In this document: piece after piece, positions 30,949 through 38,051 of the stretch
Position numbering within the stretch: the stretch's first letter is position 1
Layout: each line of letters begins with the position of its first letter
Assembly: GCF_038594945.1 (NCBI RefSeq)
Contig: NZ_JBCFYD010000001.1
Coordinates: 1,054,001 to 1,118,000, forward strand
DNA: 64,000 nt
Direction: 5' to 3'
Source: Fodinibius sp. Rm-B-1B1-1
GTDB lineage: Bacteria > Bacteroidota > Rhodothermia > Balneolales > Balneolaceae
Made by a program: the position numbers and the translations under genes
Notes under the pieces: model-generated
What the model was told of the DNA's origin: nothing
Databases searched by the model: none
The model's input: the letters and a program-made list of their open reading frames with translations, nothing else

Positions 30949-32598
30949 TTAAAGGTCAAATATTTCGCTCGGTTTTGTGTTTCGGTATTGGGGCATGATA
31001 ATTCCGACATCAGCGCCAAAATAAGTTGGGTCAGATACGTAATAGCGTTTTCCCTCATGGATGATGGGTTCATTAACACGGTCCCCGGAGGGTTCTTGTC
31101 CAGAGGGAAAATGAACAGCAATGGTGAGGTGCTTGGGATATCGCAGCACAAGGTAGTCCAAGTCTGTTAGTTCATTGAGCAAATAACCAAACATAATCGA
31201 TCGGTCATCACAGTCCGATGCCGGGTAGTAAATGGTTTCAACCGGAAACATCTTCTTTTCGTAATTAAATTGATCCCTGTCGGTTTCATATTCAAAAGAG
31301 CGTTGAGTAAAGCGAAGTAGTAAATTAACCTGTTCCAGGATCGATTTCCCCTGTAACAACGGCCGCAAAGATTTGACTAATTGGGTATATGTTTCTCCCT
31401 CAAAGTTACTATTAAAATAGAGATCTAAGCCGGCTTGTGGATATTCTTTAAAGTAGTTTATGGCTTTCATATCAACGGGCAGGCTAATCTTGTAGGTGGA
31501 ATCTCGAAAAGTGAATTGCAGGTCTCTTTGTTGTTTTTCTTGTGGGAAGGGAGGGAAGCCATCAAATAACAGGTCGAGTGATTTCTTTTGGCCCTTGCCA
31601 TGACTACCCTGATAGGTATAAAAGCTTGAGGGGAGTTCAGGATTATCTTTATCAAATTTCAGGTTATAATATCGGGTTCCATCTATAGTTGCTGATTTTT
31701 GATAAGTGTGTGGCGTTGCTGCAACAAGTACATAGAGTTCCGATTCTTTATAGGCAATTTTTGTATCAAAATTTGATTGGGTAAGCATAAACCACGTGAA
31801 TAAAACAGCTTCGTTTGTCCCTGGCCCATAAATTTGAGACCCTATATTGTTTAATAGTTGCGCATATCCATAATCATTTAATGATAGCTGAGATCGCACT
31901 TGTTGTATTTGTGTAAGAAAAGATGGATAGTCTTTTGTACTTAAGTGTTTCCAAAAGTCAGCAATAGCTTTTTGGTTAACCTGGTTTCCCAATTGTTTTT
32001 CATAGGCAGCGTAATATTTATAATCAATGGGGATCCCAAAATAATTTAATTGCTTTGCGTGAATCTCTGCTTGTTCAATATTAGGGGTAAAGTTCGGGGA
32101 AATGCCTTTGGATGGATTAACCCCTACTGATTTTTTAGTGTTTGGTTTATCTTTATGTGAAGCCGTTTGGGATTGGTTATTTTGATTTTGTCGTAAATCG
32201 GAAGTTGTATTTTTCTTTTTATTATCAGCAGAAGTACGTTTTTCAGTTTTTTGAATAGTCTTGTTCTGTTGGTTGCCCGTAGCAGGGTCTTTGCGTTCTT
32301 TTGACTTTTGAGGTTTGGGAGTAGGAGGCGATGGTTTTTCTACCGAAGGAATAGTTTTTGGTTTAGGTTCTTCGTAGAAGTCGGGACTATTTTGAGATTT
32401 AAAATCTTCCCATTCTTTTTGCAGGGTCTCATAAAACTCTTTGTCATATTCATTTTGAAACTCGTCAAACTCATTGAGGTAATTTTTCTTCCATTCCTCA
32501 AAGTCTTGTGCCTGGGCAACATTCGTTGTAATCCCAAAGACGAGTAACACTATTACCAAGCGTAAAAAATTATATAGCATATTAGGCTGGAACATCAT
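30949..32598 (-). CDS. Secreted transglutaminase-fold protein with acidic/aromatic N-terminal module
   Basis: 549 residues. Signal peptide (cleavage near AQA, residue 30, no lipobox). Next comes a helical segment with regularly spaced Trp/Phe/Tyr among Glu and Lys (about 32-68, for example FEEWKKNYLNEFDEF), then a low-complexity Pro/Lys/Gln/Asn linker (75-170). The C-terminal part is a papain/transglutaminase-like domain with Cys463 (ASDCDDRS), His496 (TIAVHF) and Asp523 (VSDPTY) as the likely triad. It may cleave or cross-link peptides in the periplasm. Divergent from the lpoB-like lipoprotein cluster, whose terminal transglycosylase has a similar N-terminal helical segment. Confidence 0.8.
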   Translation of the reverse strand: MMFQPNMLYNFLRLVIVLLVFGITTNVAQAQDFEEWKKNYLNEFDEFQNEYDKEFYETLQKEWEDFKSQNSPDFYEEPKPKTIPSVEKPSPPTPKPQKSKERKDPATGNQQNKTIQKTEKRTSADNKKKNTTSDLRQNQNNQSQTASHKDKPNTKKSVGVNPSKGISPNFTPNIEQAEIHAKQLNYFGIPIDYKYYAAYEKQLGNQVNQKAIADFWKHLSTKDYPSFLTQIQQVRSQLSLNDYGYAQLLNNIGSQIYGPGTNEAVLFTWFMLTQSNFDTKIAYKESELYVLVAATPHTYQKSATIDGTRYYNLKFDKDNPELPSSFYTYQGSHGKGQKKSLDLLFDGFPPFPQEKQQRDLQFTFRDSTYKISLPVDMKAINYFKEYPQAGLDLYFNSNFEGETYTQLVKSLRPLLQGKSILEQVNLLLRFTQRSFEYETDRDQFNYEKKMFPVETIYYPASDCDDRSIMFGYLLNELTDLDYLVLRYPKHLTIAVHFPSGQEPSGDRVNEPIIHEGKRYYVSDPTYFGADVGIIMPQYRNTKPSEIFDL

Positions 32599-32865
32599 AG
32601 TTGTCTCCCCCTCATTAAAGATGAATTATTCGAATAAATAGTAACATCAAAGATTCAGAGTTACAAAATTTAATAGAGCGGGTATGTGTATTGTTAAATG
32701 AGGATTGCTGCTTTAGGGGATTCTTACCAAAGTATAATAGGCGTTTGGCTAAGAAAATGAGTCAGAAGTAGGATTTTAATTTGAAATCTTATATTAAAAA
32801 TCGCATGTTCACAGGTGATTAAAAGTAACGGGTACAACCATAAATAAATTTAAGAGAGTCACCTT

Positions 32866-33462
32866 ATGGCCTTATCACGAATTATTATTGGTACAATTTT
32901 AGCAGGATTTCTTCTTTGGGGTTGCAGTCCCTCACAAAGTGTACAACGGGTAGATCCCAACTCCCAGTCCGATCTCTCGGGAAAATGGAATGACACTGAT
33001 GCACGGATGGTGGCAGAGGATATGACTTCTGATATCTTATCAGCTGCTTGGTTGCAGAATGTAGAATCTCCGGTTTTGATTGTTGGAGGTATCCGTAATA
33101 ATACAAGCGAGCATATCCGAACGGATATTTTTATTAAAGAAATGGAACGAGCTATTGTTAATAGTCAGAAAGTAGAGATTGTTGCAGATCCGGAACAGCG
33201 AGAGCAAATAAGGGCAGAACGGGATGATCAGCAACAGCATGCCACCTATGAATCAGCGGCTTCTCTTGCTCGGGAGTTGGGAGCAGATTATATGCTTGTT
33301 GGAAACATAGATGCAAATATTGATAAGAATTTAGATGGAACGCGGGCTGCTAAGTTTTATACGGTTAACCTTGAGTTGATAAATGTTGAGTCTAACAGGA
33401 AGGCTTGGATAGGAAATAAAAAAATTAAGAAAATGATTGAGCGAAATAAGGTAAAGTGGTAA
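32866..33462 (+). CDS. lpoB: LpoB-like penicillin-binding protein activator lipoprotein
   Basis: 198 residues. Lipobox LLWGC with Cys20. The mature domain follows the LpoB family pattern: DARMVAEDMTSDIL (about 45-58), PVLIVGGIRNNTSEHI, FIKEMERAIVNS, LGADYMLVGNI and YTVNLELINVESNRKAWIG. In E. coli LpoB is an outer-membrane lipoprotein that reaches through the peptidoglycan to activate PBP1b. No PBP gene is in the window. First gene of a cluster of five envelope genes. The 267-bp gap upstream (32599-32865) is the divergent promoter region shared with the transglutaminase-like gene; nothing specific was recognised there. Confidence 0.85.
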   Translation: MALSRIIIGTILAGFLLWGCSPSQSVQRVDPNSQSDLSGKWNDTDARMVAEDMTSDILSAAWLQNVESPVLIVGGIRNNTSEHIRTDIFIKEMERAIVNSQKVEIVADPEQREQIRAERDDQQQHATYESAASLARELGADYMLVGNIDANIDKNLDGTRAAKFYTVNLELINVESNRKAWIGNKKIKKMIERNKVKW

Positions 33463-33618
33463 GTCATTCATTGTCACTGAGTTTAGCACGATAGTTATCA
33501 GTATGTGGCACGATGTGTCGCAATCATTCAAGAGAGAGTAAGCATGGGGTGGTTCAGTTGGCAGGGGTTTAATTGCCTTCTAAAGTTAATTGGCAAAAAA
33601 TATGAGTGATCAATTATT

Positions 33619-34941
33619 ATGTTAGGAGGTCGCGTTAAAAGAATCTTGATACTCTTCGTTTTGGCCGGTCTTATTACGGGATGCGGGTCACAAAAGTTGA
33701 TGAATGGCCAAAAACAAATGAGAACGTCTTTTCAGTCGGGTGATTATGAACGTGCTGATTTTATAGCCGATAGCTTAAAAGAGAATGAGATTTACGAGGA
33801 AAAAGATCGTGTGCTTTATGCTCTCGAAAAGGGAACTATTAATTACTTTAAGGGAGATTATGAACAGAGTGTGGAGTCTTTTACCAATGCCGAAGAATAT
33901 ATAGACCAGTTTTTTAGCAAAAGTATAAAGACTGGAATTGGTGCCTTTTTGAGCAATGATACCCAGCTTAACTATAACGGAGAGGTGTATGAGGATGTGT
34001 ATTTAAATGGTTTTAAAAGCCTGGGATACTTGAAAATGGATGACTTCCAGGGGGCCATGGTCGAAGCACGTCGAATAACGGAGAAATTAGAAGAGGCCGA
34101 ACAAAAGTATGGTGAGTATGCGACTTCAATGGCCGAATCGGATACAACAGATCAGAATATTAAATGGGAGGCGGGTACCTCAAGCATTCATGCAAGTCCT
34201 CTAAGCCATTATATTGCAAGCGCCCTTCATGCCAAAGCGGGAGAAGAAGATGGGGCACGTATTGAAATGGATAACCTTAAAGAGGCGATAAAGAATCATC
34301 AGGCTATGCCGGATTCGAAGCTTAAATTCGACTCGTCTTTTGCTAAGGTTCAGCGACCAGATACTTACAATACAATGTTAATGGCTTTTTGCGGAAGTGC
34401 TCCTGATAAGGTTAATATTAGTATCAATACTGATATCAACAGAGATGGGAAGGGGGTAAAGATTGCCATTCCCAAATTAGTAATGCAGCCCTCTTCGGTA
34501 AGTGTGATTGAAGCTGTTGTAAATGATACGATGCGAACGGAGCTCAAAATTATTGAAGAAATGGATAAGGTCGCTCGGGAAACATTTGAAATTAAAAAAC
34601 CTATTATTATTGCCCGGGCCACAATCAGGGGGATTTTAAAATCTGTTGCCCAGAAAGGTATCACAGATATGGTAGAAGATGAATATGGTGAAGTGGCAGG
34701 AAGCATAGCCGGTTTTTTAGGAGGAAGAGCGCGGGAAGCATCCGAACAGGCTGATCTTAGGGGATGGCAAACGATGCCGGGGAAGATTTACACCAACGTT
34801 ATAAAACTGTCTGCCGGAAAGCATGATGTTACATTTAATTACTACTCTTCAGCTGGTGAATTACTTTATTCTGAGGCGCGAAATATAACGATAAATGAAC
34901 GGGAGCGCCTTGAACCGATAGCTTCTATTTATTCAAATTAG
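33619..34941 (+). CDS. COG3014-family lipoprotein, TPR-like
   Basis: 440 residues. Lipobox LITGC with Cys22. The first 240 residues are TPR-like helical repeats (DYERADFIADSL, then FKGDYEQSVESF, LKMDDFQGAMVEA); the C-terminal half is a beta-rich domain with RGWQTMPGKIYTNVIKL near the end, the pattern of COG3014. The family is uncharacterised but often sits beside LpoB and LPP20 genes in other bacteria, as here. A hydrophobic Ala/Gly stretch (VAGSIAGFLGG) at about 355 is not long enough to be a sure membrane helix. Confidence 0.82.
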   Translation: MLGGRVKRILILFVLAGLITGCGSQKLMNGQKQMRTSFQSGDYERADFIADSLKENEIYEEKDRVLYALEKGTINYFKGDYEQSVESFTNAEEYIDQFFSKSIKTGIGAFLSNDTQLNYNGEVYEDVYLNGFKSLGYLKMDDFQGAMVEARRITEKLEEAEQKYGEYATSMAESDTTDQNIKWEAGTSSIHASPLSHYIASALHAKAGEEDGARIEMDNLKEAIKNHQAMPDSKLKFDSSFAKVQRPDTYNTMLMAFCGSAPDKVNISINTDINRDGKGVKIAIPKLVMQPSSVSVIEAVVNDTMRTELKIIEEMDKVARETFEIKKPIIIARATIRGILKSVAQKGITDMVEDEYGEVAGSIAGFLGGRAREASEQADLRGWQTMPGKIYTNVIKLSAGKHDVTFNYYSSAGELLYSEARNITINERERLEPIASIYSN

Positions 34942-34967
34942 AAACATGTTGAATTAAGTAATCTCTT

Positions 34968-36008
34968 ATGAGCAATCAATTTTATATCCATCAGATATAC
35001 CTGGTATTAGGATTGGTATTTTTGGCTTTTACAAGCAGTTGTTCAGTAACGGCCGAAGCCCAAAACTCCGATTTGCCGAAATGGGTTAACAATCCCTCAA
35101 ATCAATTCAGTGAAAACCAATATCTGATGGCTGTTGGTTCATCGCCTACCCGGGAAGGGGCTCGTACTCAGGCGCAATCGAATTTGGCCCAAATATTTGT
35201 GTCTGAAGTCGAGGTAAATGAATCTTATGTAAATGAGTTTGAAGAGATAACAGATTCGGAAGAAGGGATCAGTGTCAGGGAAAATACGAACCTTATTACC
35301 CGGTCCGAAGTTAATTCTAACCAACAGATGCGCAATGTTGAAATAAGAGAAGTTCATGAAGCTCCAAATGGTACTTTTTATGCACTTGCCCTTATGGATC
35401 GGATGGAGACTGCGCAACTTTACAGTCGGGAAATTGAGAGCAATAGAGATAACATTAATGCTTTGCGTAAAAAAGCGTCTAATACCGAGAGTAGTTTAGA
35501 TCGATTGATTTATTCGAAGCAAGCGTTGGCCGCAGCTCAAGTGAATGATATGTTAATAAATCAGCGAGCGGTGTTAACGGGACAGGGCTCTGGAAGGGAG
35601 GCTCTGTTGGCAGAAATCACACAAGATTTTAGGGAGGCGAAGAAGGAATGCACCGTTAAATTAGTTGGTGAGTTACCAAGAGAGGTGCAATCAGAAATTA
35701 CCAGGAAGTTACAAAATGCTGGGTTTGAGATGGCGAATAACAGTAGTCCGGTTATTGAAATGAAGGCGAATTTAAGGATGGAACCAGTTGATCTAAATAG
35801 GCCGAAATATGAATTTATTCAGTGGGCCTTGCAGGTTGAGGCGCAGAATAAAGAGAATGGTCAATGGTTTAGCACGTATATGAGTGAGGGTCGTGAGGGA
35901 AGTATGAATGAGAAGTATGCACGCCAACGCTCTATTCAGGCTGTCCAAGAGAAATTATCCTCAGAATTTATGGACTATATTAATAAGGAGTTATTATCTG
36001 TCGATTGA
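34968..36008 (+). CDS. LPP20-like lipoprotein, long form
   Basis: 346 residues. Signal peptide with lipobox FTSSC, Cys25. Residues about 30-150 resemble LPP20 lipoproteins: LPKWVNNPSNQF, YLMAVGSSPTREGARTQAQSNLAQIF, and a late VEIREVHEAPNGTFYALALMDR. The C-terminal half (from 200) is a separate domain with KLVGELPREVQSEITRKLQ, possibly a PEGA- or SPOR-unrelated ligand-binding fold. 26 bp after the COG3014 gene, so the same operon. LPP20 proteins are surface lipoproteins in Helicobacter; the function here is unknown. Confidence 0.8.
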   Translation: MSNQFYIHQIYLVLGLVFLAFTSSCSVTAEAQNSDLPKWVNNPSNQFSENQYLMAVGSSPTREGARTQAQSNLAQIFVSEVEVNESYVNEFEEITDSEEGISVRENTNLITRSEVNSNQQMRNVEIREVHEAPNGTFYALALMDRMETAQLYSREIESNRDNINALRKKASNTESSLDRLIYSKQALAAAQVNDMLINQRAVLTGQGSGREALLAEITQDFREAKKECTVKLVGELPREVQSEITRKLQNAGFEMANNSSPVIEMKANLRMEPVDLNRPKYEFIQWALQVEAQNKENGQWFSTYMSEGREGSMNEKYARQRSIQAVQEKLSSEFMDYINKELLSVD

Positions 36009-36126
36009 TAAATGTGATTTTCAGGCAATTTTTTTTAAACTGTATTCCGATTATTGAAGGTCTTAATAATAAGTTCATCAATATGGACTACATTCATTAC
36101 ATCATCTAATATAAATAGGGATCATT

Positions 36127-36717
36127 ATGAAAACACGTATACTACTTACTTTTTTAGTAGCTGGATTTTTAGCGTTCGGCTGCAGTAGCTCAGAAAATGT
36201 GCAAGACAATGCGGGTAGCGATTTGCCCAGCTGGTACACGAATCCGCCAAGCAGTGATAGCGAATATATGTATGCTATTGGTGAAGGGACCTCTTCTCGT
36301 AGAAGTATGGCGCGGAAGCAGGCGATGCAAAATGGACGTGCGGCACTTACGTTAAAGCTTGAATCTGAAGTGAGTGCTATGCAGAAAAACTTTGCAGAAG
36401 AAACCACTTCTGGGGCAAATAGTAATTACAGTGAGGTTTTTACTGATGTTTCAAAATCTGTGGGTCAACAAACACTGCGTGGTGTAGATGTGGACCGAAG
36501 CAAGTTTTATACACGTGATAACAATACCAAGCATGAGGTATTAATGTTGGTTCGTTTGCCTGTTGGTGAAGCTGCAGATGCTTTGAATCAGGCTCTTGAA
36601 AATACATTATCGAAGGATGAAGAGATGTATACCAAGTTTAAGGCTTCAAAAGGGTTTGAAGAGATGAAACAATCCATTGAAGAAATGAAGGAAGGAAATA
36701 TGCCATCAGGGAATTAG
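36127..36717 (+). CDS. LPP20-like lipoprotein, short form
   Basis: 196 residues. Lipobox AFGC with Cys19. Mature domain starts LPSWYTNPPSSDSEYMYAIG and GTSSRRSMARKQAMQNGRAAL, closely parallel to the N-terminal domain of the preceding gene, so the two are probably ancient paralogs. The C-terminal tail is helical and charged (FEEMKQSIEEMKEGN). Separated from the preceding gene by 118 bp and followed by a terminator, so it may be expressed at higher level than its neighbours. Confidence 0.85.
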   Translation: MKTRILLTFLVAGFLAFGCSSSENVQDNAGSDLPSWYTNPPSSDSEYMYAIGEGTSSRRSMARKQAMQNGRAALTLKLESEVSAMQKNFAEETTSGANSNYSEVFTDVSKSVGQQTLRGVDVDRSKFYTRDNNTKHEVLMLVRLPVGEAADALNQALENTLSKDEEMYTKFKASKGFEEMKQSIEEMKEGNMPSGN

Positions 36718-36736
36718 AAATTTCCCAGGAATAATA

Positions 36737-36776
36737 ATATCTCGACCCGGTTATTTCCGGGTTGGGATATTTTTTT
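36737..36776 (+). terminator. Rho-independent terminator within the envelope cluster
   Basis: A 14-bp stem with two G-T pairs: ATATCTCGACCCGG (36737-36750) with CCGGGTTGGGATAT (36757-36770), loop TTATTT, then six T. It separates the lipoprotein genes from the transglycosylase gene, which must have its own promoter or receive readthrough. Confidence 0.88.
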
Positions 36777-36842
36777 ATAGGCTTGATTGAATTGGTAGAT
36801 GTTTCAATGAGGTTAAAAATGTTAATTTGAGAGAGGTCCGTT

Positions 36843-38051
36843 ATGTATAGGCGACCAAAAAGGGTGGGGACAATAGAGGGGAAGGTGGTACTTCTTGTTG
36901 CTTTTCTTGTGTTAAATGTATCATCAGTGTTTGCCCAAGGATACGAAGATTATAAAGAAGAAATGGAAGAGGGCTATAACGAGTATGTTGAAGATATTGA
37001 AAATGGAGTAGCTTCCTCAGAAGAAGATTATGAGGCGTACCAGAAAAAAGTGGAGAAAGAATTCAATGCATTTAAAGAGGAGATGCTTAAGAAATGGGGT
37101 GATTTTAAAGAGCGCTCCAAAAAAGAATGGGTAGAATATAAAGAGAACGGGACTCTTCGAATTTCAACGGATTTTGAAGAGGGGACTGGCCAGGTTGAGG
37201 TGATAGCTGAAAGCAAGGAAGAGGCCGAGAAAATAAAAGAAGAAATGCCGGAAAAGGTATCGGGTGCTATGAAGTCAAAGGGCACTCAGGAGGGGTTTGA
37301 AACCGATAGCGTGCCTAATAAAGAAGTCACTGATGAAGCTGTTTTAGAAGGTCAGTTAGATAAGTCCGAAGATCAGACTGTGGATGAGTATGCCGAGGAA
37401 GTAGCAGAGAAGAATACGAAAACCAAGGAGGTTCAGGGCGATGACGGAGAAACTCGTTATGTGGTATATGTGGATTTCCAATTAGCTGATGATCATATGC
37501 AGAAACGGGCGAAAAAAGTTGAAGATTTTGTGTATAAGTTCTCGGAAGAGCACAATATTGATCCTGCGTTTACCTTTGCCATCATACATGTAGAGTCGCA
37601 CTTCAATCCCACTGCTGCTTCACATGCCAATGCGTATGGTTTGATGCAGTTAGTACCTACTACGGGTGGCCGGGATGCATATCGCAGAATCTTTAATGAA
37701 GATGGGATTCCAACCAAAGAGTTCTTGTTTGAGCCAAGTAATAATATCCAGATGGGAACGACCTTTTTAGATATTATGGAATCAAACTATTTTGATCGGG
37801 CTGACAATAATACTACTCGCGAATACTTGATAACAGCTGCCTATAACACTGGGGCCGGGAATGTTTCTGTTGCTTATACTGGAGATACGAATCTTTCCAA
37901 AGCTTTTTCAAAAATAAACAGCATGTCGCCTGAGGAAAACTATAATTATTTGCGAAAAAATCTGGAATATGCAGAGGCGCGAAACTACCTTAAGAAGGTA
38001 ACGACCCAACGAGAAAAGTACAGTCAGTGGAAGCGTCAGGCAGAAAAATAG
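36843..38051 (+). CDS. MltC-like lytic transglycosylase (DUF3393 plus SLT domain)
   Basis: 402 residues with GAGAGGT before the ATG. Signal peptide (cleaved near FAQ, residue 32, no lipid Cys). Residues 33-160 contain acidic helices with spaced aromatics (YEAYQKKVEKEFNAFKEEM), then WGDFKERSKKEWVEY and STDFEEGTGQVEV, matching the N-terminal DUF3393 domain of MltC. The C-terminal SLT domain has catalytic Glu251 in HVESHFNP, NAYGLMQL and ITAAYNTGAGNVSVAY. It cleaves glycan strands to 1,6-anhydromuropeptides. It lacks the lipid anchor of E. coli MltC, so it would be a soluble periplasmic enzyme. Last gene of the envelope cluster. Confidence 0.9.
   Translation: MYRRPKRVGTIEGKVVLLVAFLVLNVSSVFAQGYEDYKEEMEEGYNEYVEDIENGVASSEEDYEAYQKKVEKEFNAFKEEMLKKWGDFKERSKKEWVEYKENGTLRISTDFEEGTGQVEVIAESKEEAEKIKEEMPEKVSGAMKSKGTQEGFETDSVPNKEVTDEAVLEGQLDKSEDQTVDEYAEEVAEKNTKTKEVQGDDGETRYVVYVDFQLADDHMQKRAKKVEDFVYKFSEEHNIDPAFTFAIIHVESHFNPTAASHANAYGLMQLVPTTGGRDAYRRIFNEDGIPTKEFLFEPSNNIQMGTTFLDIMESNYFDRADNNTTREYLITAAYNTGAGNVSVAYTGDTNLSKAFSKINSMSPEENYNYLRKNLEYAEARNYLKKVTTQREKYSQWKRQAEK

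What the first reader, a model, noticed from the sequence alone, without database searches (positions are those of the whole stretch)
30949..38051. Envelope module: transglutaminase-fold protein, LpoB-like, COG3014, two LPP20-like lipoproteins and MltC-like transglycosylase
Six neighbouring genes all encode exported proteins. One is a PBP-activator homologue and one a glycan-cleaving enzyme, with a papain-fold protein at the far end. LpoB, COG3014 and LPP20 genes travel together in other bacteria, but no joint function is established and addition of the transglutaminase-like protein and an MltC-like enzyme suggests a complete synthesis/cleavage complex at the outer membrane. This is the best candidate in the window for an undescribed system.
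Basis: partly seen in the sequence, partly recalled or inferred. Interest (0 to 1): 0.78.

Follow-up and report, generated by a model that had tools for sequence, protein, structure and literature searches.

The report
Lipoprotein-docked cell-wall enzyme gene cluster
Six neighbouring genes encode four outer-membrane lipoproteins and two periplasmic enzymes, apparently a cell-wall remodelling module with relatives in several bacterial phyla, whose enzymes share a short segment that looks like a common docking tag.

Summary
Gene order is TG(-), then LpoB-like, COG3014, LPP20a, LPP20b and MltC-like (+). Four products look like lipoproteins. TG and MltC are exported but not lipidated. TG is a papain/transglutaminase-fold enzyme, closest in fold to LapG, with an invariant Cys-His-Asp and no Pfam or NCBIfam family.

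The set is not strain-specific. Seven of 12 same-genus genomes have the same array. In 128 genomes of the order TG, LPP20a, LPP20b and MltC are largely present or absent together, even where unlinked; flagella and LpoB track them much less. Elsewhere LPP20 genes crowd around TG (47 of 204 ORFs within 1 kb, 7 of 375 beyond 4 kb).

New here: TG and MltC share a short segment at the mature N-terminus. It also occurs in FecR-domain proteins and one M23 endopeptidase encoded beside TG elsewhere.

Best reading: an outer-membrane lipoprotein scaffold that recruits soluble peptidoglycan enzymes through this segment. Docking and substrate are inferred. An E. coli-type LpoB-PBP1B circuit is doubtful (no UB2H match in this genome). 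A terminator-like hairpin precedes mltC, so it is not one simple operon.

The parts
30949..32598 (-). TG: exported papain/transglutaminase-fold protein (549 aa), N-terminal segment, disordered linker, catalytic-type domain about residues 390-549 (C463, H490, D523)
   Evidence: alignments; AlphaFold2 model pLDDT 86.2; fold matches to LapG
32437..32508 (-). Shared segment in TG: residues 31-54, the part that aligns with MltC (profile taken over residues 30-78)
   Evidence: hhalign to MltC N-terminus score 29.9 against a maximum of 20.1 in 100 column shuffles
32866..33462 (+). LpoB-like lipoprotein (198 aa)
   Evidence: Pfam LpoB 2.3e-33; TIGR02722 90.7 bits, below its 110.55 cut-off
33619..34941 (+). 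COG3014-type lipoprotein (440 aa): helical TPR-like N-terminal half, mostly beta C-terminal half
   Evidence: AlphaFold2 model pLDDT 69.8; TPR matches, LpoP Z 13.0 tied with generic TPR folds
34968..36008 (+). LPP20a lipoprotein (346 aa; LPP20 domain plus C-terminal region)
   Evidence: Pfam LPP20 2.7e-11
36127..36717 (+). LPP20b lipoprotein (196 aa), the partner most tightly associated with TG
   Evidence: Pfam LPP20 1.2e-8; co-occurrence with TG 28 both, 1 TG only, 6 LPP20b only, 93 neither
36736..36771 (+). Intrinsic-terminator-like hairpin between LPP20b and mltC
   Evidence: a hairpin in the same gap in 7 of 7 same-genus loci that hold the array, T tail weak in L123 and unclear in L127
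36843..38051 (+). MltC-like lytic transglycosylase (402 aa), not lipidated; Mltc_N 67-225, SLT 234-344, catalytic-type Glu251 invariant in 19 of 19
36936..37007 (+). Shared segment in MltC: residues 32-55, the part that aligns with TG

Best explanation
This is an outer-membrane lipoprotein module that holds soluble periplasmic peptidoglycan-active enzymes at the outer membrane. LPP20a, LPP20b and, in this genus, the LpoB-like and TPR-containing COG3014 lipoproteins form the membrane-anchored scaffold (inferred). Two secreted enzymes without lipid anchors, the MltC-like lytic transglycosylase and the LapG/transglutaminase-fold TG protein, carry a similar segment at their mature N-terminus (shown) and are recruited by it (inferred). 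MltC opens glycan strands (from its family). TG cuts or makes an amide or isopeptide bond, most likely in peptidoglycan peptides or between peptidoglycan and an outer-membrane protein (inferred). The module then remodels or tethers the wall below the outer membrane. Shown: gene content, recurrent co-location and co-occurrence, intact catalytic-type residues, predicted fold, shared segment. Inferred: docking, complex, substrate, regulation.
For: (1) Same gene order in 7 of 12 same-genus genomes (COG3014 doubled in one); in G154 the same site holds only LPP20b and a TG remnant with 4 stop codons. (2) 128 genomes of the order: TG-LPP20b 28 both/1/6/93 neither; MltC-LPP20b 23/0/11/94; LPP20a-LPP20b 24/10/1/93; TG-MltC 21/8/2/97. 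Controls: TG-LpoB 21/8/30/69, TG-flagellar rod protein 18/11/35/64. In G143 and G089 the genes lie on three contigs and still co-occur. (3) Outside this genus LPP20a is present or absent in place between COG3014 and LpoB. (4) Other phyla: 52 of 79 TG loci hold an LPP20 gene; 47 of 204 ORFs within 1 kb of TG against 7 of 375 beyond 4 kb. LpoB-COG3014-LPP20a-LPP20b-LPP20c-X-TG in Calditrichota L191, L195 and, with the same five genes before TG, L230; LpoB, LPP20, COG3014, LPP20b, a 145-aa ORF, TG and MltC together in Gammaproteobacteria L200; TG-LPP20-LPP20-MltC in Deferribacterota L229. (5) Segment: reciprocal profile hits. In 80 further loci the MltC-segment profile hits 50 of 79 TG, 5 of 5 MltC (two of them in the profile) and 6 of 984 other ORFs, all 6 beside TG or within 0.7 kb: 5 FecR-domain proteins and one M23 endopeptidase. 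After its own 8 members, a profile from FecR C-termini lists TG proteins in all 52 further rows shown (one a TG fragment). (6) TG fold: LapG, TglA, pseudomurein endoisopeptidase PeiP, transglutaminases. (7) COG3014 is TPR-like, LpoP top but tied.
Against: MltC is missing in 8 of 29 TG genomes, and LPP20a in 8 of 29. MltC is strong (E<1e-20) in only 5 of 80 cross-phylum loci, two of them same-genus. 27 of 79 TG loci have no LPP20 hit at E<1e-5 (many contigs are short); none of the 3 Cloacimonadota, 3 Campylobacterota or 2 Fidelibacterota loci has LPP20 within 1 kb. Seven of 32 TG proteins in the first alignment lack the N-terminal segment, four of them from genomes that do have LPP20b (G005, G016, G079, G087). 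On a 31-genome tree TG gives only 4 independent pairs; the partner goes the same way in 3.0-3.8, never the other way, and the sign test (p 0.125-0.25) cannot reach significance. The aligned segment is 22-24 residues, charged and helical, so convergence is possible; single-profile E-values are modest (best 3e-4 for the MltC profile on TG), and the FecR profile at i-E<1 also gives 35 'other' rows, 8 of them its own members. Foldseek gives no match at E<=0.001 for either model. Nothing here shows TG or LPP20 acting on peptidoglycan. A terminator-like hairpin separates mltC.
Confidence: 0.5

Rival explanations
1. LapG-like surface control: TG is a periplasmic cysteine protease that trims a surface adhesin or other outer-membrane protein, and the LPP20 lipoproteins are its regulators or substrates; MltC is a bystander.
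For: LapG is the best fold match (NCBIfam LapG at E 0.0062, 15.8 of 320 bits, in one relative). TG-LPP20b is tighter than TG-MltC and more widespread. HvyA (PMC4241560, passages) is a periplasmic transglutaminase-like protease that restricts the capsule.
Against: No giant adhesin gene is among the ORFs of the window. The segment is shared with wall enzymes (MltC, one M23). The LapG match covers about 131-148 of 549 residues.
Confidence: 0.22
2. E. coli-type synthase activation: the LpoB-like protein stimulates a class A PBP, with COG3014 as an LpoP-like second activator; the other genes are accessory.
For: LpoB family hit; COG3014 TPR fold with LpoP as top match, tied with other TPRs; LpoB in 51 of 128 genomes.
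Against: No UB2H match in G000 at E 0.001. 63 of 128 genomes match, 26 over the cut-off, but mostly in 1044-1226-aa frames that I take for Mfd. LpoB equivalog score below the cut-off. 30 of 51 LpoB genomes lack TG. The genome's PBPs were not examined, and UB2H need not be the only contact.
Confidence: 0.13
3. Flagellar accessory: LPP20/FlgP-like lipoproteins with a lytic transglycosylase serve a flagellar basal disk or hole-making.
For: HP1456 (Lpp20) interacts with FlgP and FapH in H. pylori (PMC11756786, passages). In two relatives TG lies beside a tandem array of which the one gene scanned is a flagellin. Unstratified association p 0.0096.
Against: G081 and G153 have the module but no rod-protein hit, while G151, G152, G156 and G157 have rod proteins but no module. 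The H. pylori hp1456 deletion left flagella, motility and motor structure as in wild type.
Confidence: 0.05
4. Unrelated envelope genes that happen to lie together, with co-occurrence due to shared ancestry and habitat.
For: Few independent transitions on the tree; terminator-like hairpin between units.
Against: In genomes such as G143 and G089 three unlinked loci are all present; recurrent clustering in several phyla; segment hits confined to TG, MltC and genes beside TG.
Confidence: 0.1

Closest known systems
LpoB / LpoP outer-membrane activators of PBP1B (LpoB E. coli, LpoP P. aeruginosa)
   Same: LpoB-family lipoprotein; the TPR lipoprotein COG3014 has LpoP as its top, tied, fold match
   Different: No UB2H match in this genome; combined with LPP20 lipoproteins and two enzymes; varies independently of them
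E. coli MltC lytic transglycosylase
   Same: Mltc_N and SLT domains, NCBIfam MltC 188 bits, Glu invariant
   Different: Below the MltC equivalog cut-off (375 bits); no lipobox; extra N-terminal segment shared with TG
LapG / BTLCP periplasmic cysteine proteases (also HvyA)
   Same: Papain/transglutaminase-type fold over about residues 390-549, Cys-His-Asp
   Different: Window TG has no NCBIfam LapG hit; long N-terminal part with the segment; next to LPP20 lipoproteins
H. pylori HP1454-HP1457 / LPP20 lipoproteins and HP0018
   Same: LPP20 lipoprotein (HP1456) in one operon with HP1454; HP1457 is an LpoB homologue; HP0018, in one predicted operon with the hp1457 homologue in many enterohepatic Helicobacter species, has MltD and AmiA as potential co-IP partners (PMC11394524, PMC11756786, passages)
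   Different: No transglutaminase-like or MltC gene mentioned in the passages seen; function unresolved
NlpI (E. coli TPR lipoprotein adaptor for wall hydrolases; recalled, not tested)
   Same: Works-like analogy: a TPR outer-membrane lipoprotein that gathers hydrolases
   Different: No sequence relation tested; COG3014 matches TPR folds in general

Membership tests
LpoB PBP1B activator | LpoB domain in a lipoprotein | tested here: met
   Pfam LpoB 115.6 bits against cut-off 22.3; lipobox-like Cys20 read from the sequence
LpoB PBP1B activator | LpoB equivalog score (TIGR02722) | tested here: not met
   90.7 bits against 110.55
LpoB PBP1B activator | Partner PBP with a UB2H domain in the genome | tested here: not met
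   No UB2H match in G000 at E 0.001 (97.7% complete genome); matches in 63 of 128 genomes lie mostly in 1044-1226-aa frames, five in shorter frames
LpoB PBP1B activator | Stimulates a class A PBP | not testable with these tools
   Needs biochemistry
MltC | Mltc_N plus SLT domains with catalytic Glu | tested here: met
   (E251 invariant in 19 of 19)
MltC | Lipoprotein anchor (recalled for E. coli MltC) | tested here: not met
   A31-Q32 invariant in 19 of 19; no lipobox Cys in the window protein
MltC | MltC equivalog score (NF008670) | tested here: not met
   188.4 bits against 375
LapG / BTLCP | Papain/transglutaminase fold with Cys-His-Asp | tested here: met
   C463, H490, D523 invariant in 65 of 65; LapG 4fgo/4fgq/4fgp Z 9.4-9.5, rmsd 3.5-3.8, 131-134 aligned; chain E of 4u65, taken to be LapG, Z 11.0, rmsd 5.3, 148 aligned
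LapG / BTLCP | Sequence-family membership | tested here: not met
   Window TG has no NCBIfam hit although a LapG model exists; no LapG-named family among the Pfam families listed for A1 (25 of 26 shown) or A3
LapG / BTLCP | Calcium-dependent cleavage of a LapA-type adhesin under LapD control | not testable with these tools
   Needs biochemistry
LPP20 lipoproteins | LPP20 domain above Pfam cut-off | tested here: met
   44.2 and 35.7 bits against 25.9
FlgP-type flagellar disk protein | Presence tracks flagella | tested here: not met
   Module without rod-protein hit in G081 and G153; rod proteins without module in G151, G152, G156, G157

The most novel reading that the evidence does not exclude
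A previously undescribed, widely distributed outer-membrane 'wall-remodelling dock': LPP20 lipoproteins form an assembly that captures diverse soluble wall enzymes (MltC-type transglycosylase, M23 endopeptidase, the TG cysteine amidase or transpeptidase) and a FecR-domain protein through one exchangeable FEEWKKQQ-type helical segment, with TG making or breaking covalent links between peptidoglycan and the outer membrane.
Probability: 0.25. Interest if true: 0.85.

Novelty: new variant of a known kind. Interest (0 to 1): 0.62.

Why it matters
How lipoproteins in the outer membrane control enzymes in the wall below is known in detail mainly for a few proteobacterial cases (recalled). A lipoprotein-enzyme module that recurs in several phyla, with a short segment shared by different wall enzymes, gives a concrete, testable docking hypothesis. 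It also suggests a function for LPP20 and COG3014 proteins; COG3014 occurs in none of the papers searched.

Tried and rejected
Flagellar association: tested and largely rejected by within-genus contrast. UB2H partner: no match in G000. In the MltC order survey 52 genomes matched at 1e-5; 29 had best E from 8.2e-6 to 4.0e-10, mainly over the SLT region, and were dropped before counting; I kept the 23 below 1e-50, a threshold set after seeing the gap. Dropped likewise: G247 for LPP20b (7.5e-6), G154 for LPP20a (1.9e-6, the hit is its LPP20b), G154 for TG (pseudogene). Up to 14 first-look candidates per genome were scored for MltC, so absences hold at that sensitivity. COG3014 was searched in the phylum sample only (148 genomes), not in the order survey. 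Phylogenetic test: underpowered; quick tree, four gappy rows, one long row (G232), part of the printed output cut. PDB sequence search with the TG profile: nothing significant, LapG 4fgo at E 1.3. PDB sequence search with LPP20a: nothing relevant; with LpoB: E. coli-type LpoB at 0.018 at best. Terminator-like sites: 4 found against 5.1 expected; promoter-like sites 13 against 20.5, so only the hairpin recurring in 7 of 7 loci is used. Bacteroidota TGs of about 870-930 aa: no wall-enzyme fusion; one (L224) passes the Pfam cut-off for a beta-propeller repeat, others are weak or empty. A strict pattern for the segment matches 21 of 109 TG, 5 of 23 MltC and 7 of 1757 other ORFs, of which one looks unrelated, the rest being a TG fragment, four FecR and the M23. 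Papers: COG3014 (0), LPP20+MltC (0), LPP20+LpoB (1), MltC+transglutaminase (2, unrelated by listing), LPP20+transglutaminase (6, unrelated by listing). 'Not in print' means only this open library. PMC12096838 (passages): its 'inactive transglutaminase' is fused to seven transmembrane helices, a different thing; the same screen found that loss of a LapG-like protease raises vesiculation. Names are MAG titles; L165 (Flavobacteriales) and L166 (Nitrospirota) carry near-identical COG3014 proteins, so some phylum labels are probably wrong.

Full report
What is there. The window holds six exported-protein genes at 30949-38051: TG on the minus strand, then LpoB-like, COG3014, LPP20a, LPP20b and MltC-like on the plus strand, between a sodium:solute symporter gene and a glycogen-branching-type enzyme gene. 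Pfam supports LpoB, two LPP20 proteins and an MltC-type SLT enzyme with Mltc_N. The TG and COG3014 proteins fall in no Pfam or NCBIfam family. From the sequence, four products carry a lipobox-like Cys; TG and MltC do not. In 19 MltC sequences A31-Q32 is invariant, so this MltC is a soluble secreted protein, unlike the E. coli lipoprotein (recalled). A strong hairpin with a T run separates LPP20b from mltC, and a hairpin recurs in that gap in 7 of 7 same-genus arrays. TG is divergent. The set is thus probably three transcription units, not one operon.

Is it strain-specific? No. Seven of 12 genomes of the genus have the same array between the same flanking genes, one of them with COG3014 doubled. 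Four (G151, G152, G156, G157) have none of the five genes searched at order level; COG3014 was not searched in them. G154 keeps the flanks and LPP20b with a TG remnant holding four stop codons; LpoB, COG3014, LPP20a and mltC are gone from the site. L162, an uncultured Aliifodinibius contig with the same array, names the group.

Co-occurrence. In 128 genomes of the order (counted): TG-LPP20b both 28, TG only 1, LPP20b only 6, neither 93; TG-MltC 21, 8, 2, 97; TG-LPP20a 21, 8, 4, 95; MltC-LPP20b 23, 0, 11, 94; LPP20a-LPP20b 24, 10, 1, 93 (in each: both, first only, second only, neither; LPP20b first would read 10 and 1). Controls are weaker: TG-LpoB 21, 8, 30, 69; TG-flagellar rod protein 18, 11, 35, 64. 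In G143 and G089 the genes lie on three different contigs and still co-occur. Outside this genus LPP20a is present or absent in place between COG3014 and LpoB. The genomes are related, so I built a quick tree of 31 of them from ten syntenic proteins: TG changes 4 times, LPP20a and LPP20b 3 times each, MltC 5, flagella 6. TG gives 4 independent pairs; MltC goes the same way in 3.8 of them on average and LPP20a and LPP20b in 3.0, none the other way, but so few pairs cannot reach significance (p 0.125-0.25).

Other phyla. Of 79 loci with a strong TG hit, 52 hold an LPP20 gene at E<1e-5 and 27 do not. LPP20 genes make up 47 of 204 ORFs of 100 aa or more within 1 kb of TG, 30 of 322 at 1-4 kb and 7 of 375 beyond. 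LPP20 within 1 kb by label: Pseudomonadota 28 of 33, Bacteroidota 4 of 14, Calditrichota 2 of 7, Ignavibacteriota 1 of 3, single loci of Nitrospirota, Caldisericota, Myxococcota and Deferribacterota; none in 4 Balneolota, 3 Cloacimonadota, 3 Campylobacterota, 3 unassigned, 2 Fidelibacterota and single loci of three more. At E<1e-10, 36 of 79 loci have LPP20 within 1 kb, and 67 of 73 LPP20 genes at any distance in these loci share TG's strand. LpoB, COG3014 and LPP20 lie with TG in 8 of 79 loci, COG3014 with LPP20 in one more. MltC is strong (E<1e-20) in 5 of 80, two of them same-genus. LPP20b and MltC lie close together without TG nearby in G232, G235 and G093. A third LPP20-type protein (LPP20c, mostly 240-284 aa) often sits between or beside LPP20b and TG.

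The shared segment. Right after the signal peptide TG has an FEEWKK-type segment; MltC has a similar one. Their alignments match by hhalign over 24 columns at 85.5% (score 29.9; maximum 20.1 in 100 column shuffles). With no Balneolota rows on the TG side it is 56.7% over 22 columns (score 25.0; maximum 17.6 of 200 shuffles). Among 1358 ORFs of the unnamed loci, the best non-self hits of each profile are members of the other family. In the 80 loci the MltC-segment profile, at a lax threshold (listed E up to about 0.4, best 3e-4 on TG), hits 50 of 79 TG, 5 of 5 MltC (two of them in the profile) and 6 of 984 others. All six lie beside TG or within 0.7 kb: five FecR-domain proteins with the segment near the C-terminus and one M23 endopeptidase with it at the N-terminus. 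The TG-segment profile hits 77 of 79 TG, 2 of 5 MltC and 9 of 984 others, eight beside TG or within 0.7 kb and one (L166) further off. A profile built from eight FecR C-termini lists, after its own members, TG in all 52 further rows shown (one a TG fragment); at i-E<1 it gives 96 TG rows, 18 MltC, 35 other (8 its own), 2 COG3014, 1 LPP20b and 1 unrelated. Across 65 TG proteins D52, L59, W63, K79 and P84 of the N-terminal region are invariant, most of them beyond the part that aligns with MltC. Against it: 7 of 32 TG proteins lack the segment, four of them in genomes with LPP20b. The segment is short and charged, so convergence cannot be excluded.

Folds. The TG model is good (pLDDT 86.2). Foldseek gives no match at E<=0.001; LapG leads at 4.2e-3. 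By VIA residues about 390-549 match LapG (Z 9.4-9.5; 11.0 for chain E of 4u65, which I take to be LapG), TglA (9.0), pseudomurein endoisopeptidase PeiP (8.1) and transglutaminases (8.0 and less). C463, H490 and D523 are invariant. The COG3014 model is fair (pLDDT 69.8): TPR-like helices, then mostly beta. LpoP is the top VIA match (Z 13.0, rmsd 1.7, 104 aligned) but tied with generic TPR folds, which tend to score high for helical repeats; Foldseek's best is a TPR at 4.4e-3.

Mechanism. The reading I favour is an outer-membrane scaffold of LPP20 lipoproteins, with LpoB and COG3014 in this genus, that docks soluble wall enzymes through the segment. Anatomy, co-occurrence, predicted fold and shared segment are shown; docking, complex and substrate are inferred. 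The wall is the likeliest target because the segment-bearing partners with known chemistry are a transglycosylase and an M23 endopeptidase. LapG-like control of surface proteins is the main rival. An E. coli-type LpoB-PBP1B circuit is less likely: G000 has no UB2H match, and the matches in 63 of 128 genomes (26 over the cut-off) lie mostly in 1044-1226-aa frames that look like Mfd (the Mfd reading is mine).

Known work. H. pylori has an LpoB homologue (HP1457), and an LPP20 protein (HP1456) in one operon with HP1454. HP0018, in one predicted operon with the hp1457 homologue in many enterohepatic Helicobacter species, had MltD and AmiA as potential co-IP partners; the hp1456 deletion left motility and motor unchanged (PMC11394524 and PMC11756786, passages). 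HvyA is a precedent for a periplasmic transglutaminase-like enzyme whose catalytic residues are needed (PMC4241560, passages). No held paper names COG3014 or holds both LPP20 and MltC. I rate it a new variant of a known kind: lipoprotein control of wall enzymes.

Noticed in passing
L083:2137-7973 and L086:9887-16944 (G046, G127): TG lies directly beside a tandem array of five (L083) or six (L086) ORFs of 316-318 aa; the one scanned by Pfam is a flagellin.
   Followed up: partly
L127:8704-11563 (G158): COG3014 is duplicated inside the array; G158 also has two further LpoB copies elsewhere, one with an in-frame TAG.
   Followed up: no
L124:1674-3707 (G154): The genome that lost the array keeps a divergent LpoB-COG3014 pair at another site; its LpoB match shows one TAG.
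   Followed up: no
L122:5172-5945 and L127:4767-5519: In two same-genus genomes an LPP20c-like gene sits between mltC and the branching-enzyme gene, on the opposite strand; the window has none there.
   Followed up: no
L239:8685-11342, L231:10007-12661, L224:1079-3700, L226:1142-3928, L241:9968-12568: Bacteroidota TG homologues of about 870-930 aa have a C-terminal extension; L224 passes the Pfam cut-off for a beta-propeller repeat.
   Followed up: partly
L165 and L166: Near-identical COG3014 genes in contigs titled Flavobacteriales and Nitrospirota; one MAG is probably mis-binned.
   Followed up: no
G163 C3:51073-52260 and G180 C124:1528-2670: MltC matches with one in-frame stop each in genomes that bear other module genes, perhaps decay or sequencing error.
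   Followed up: no
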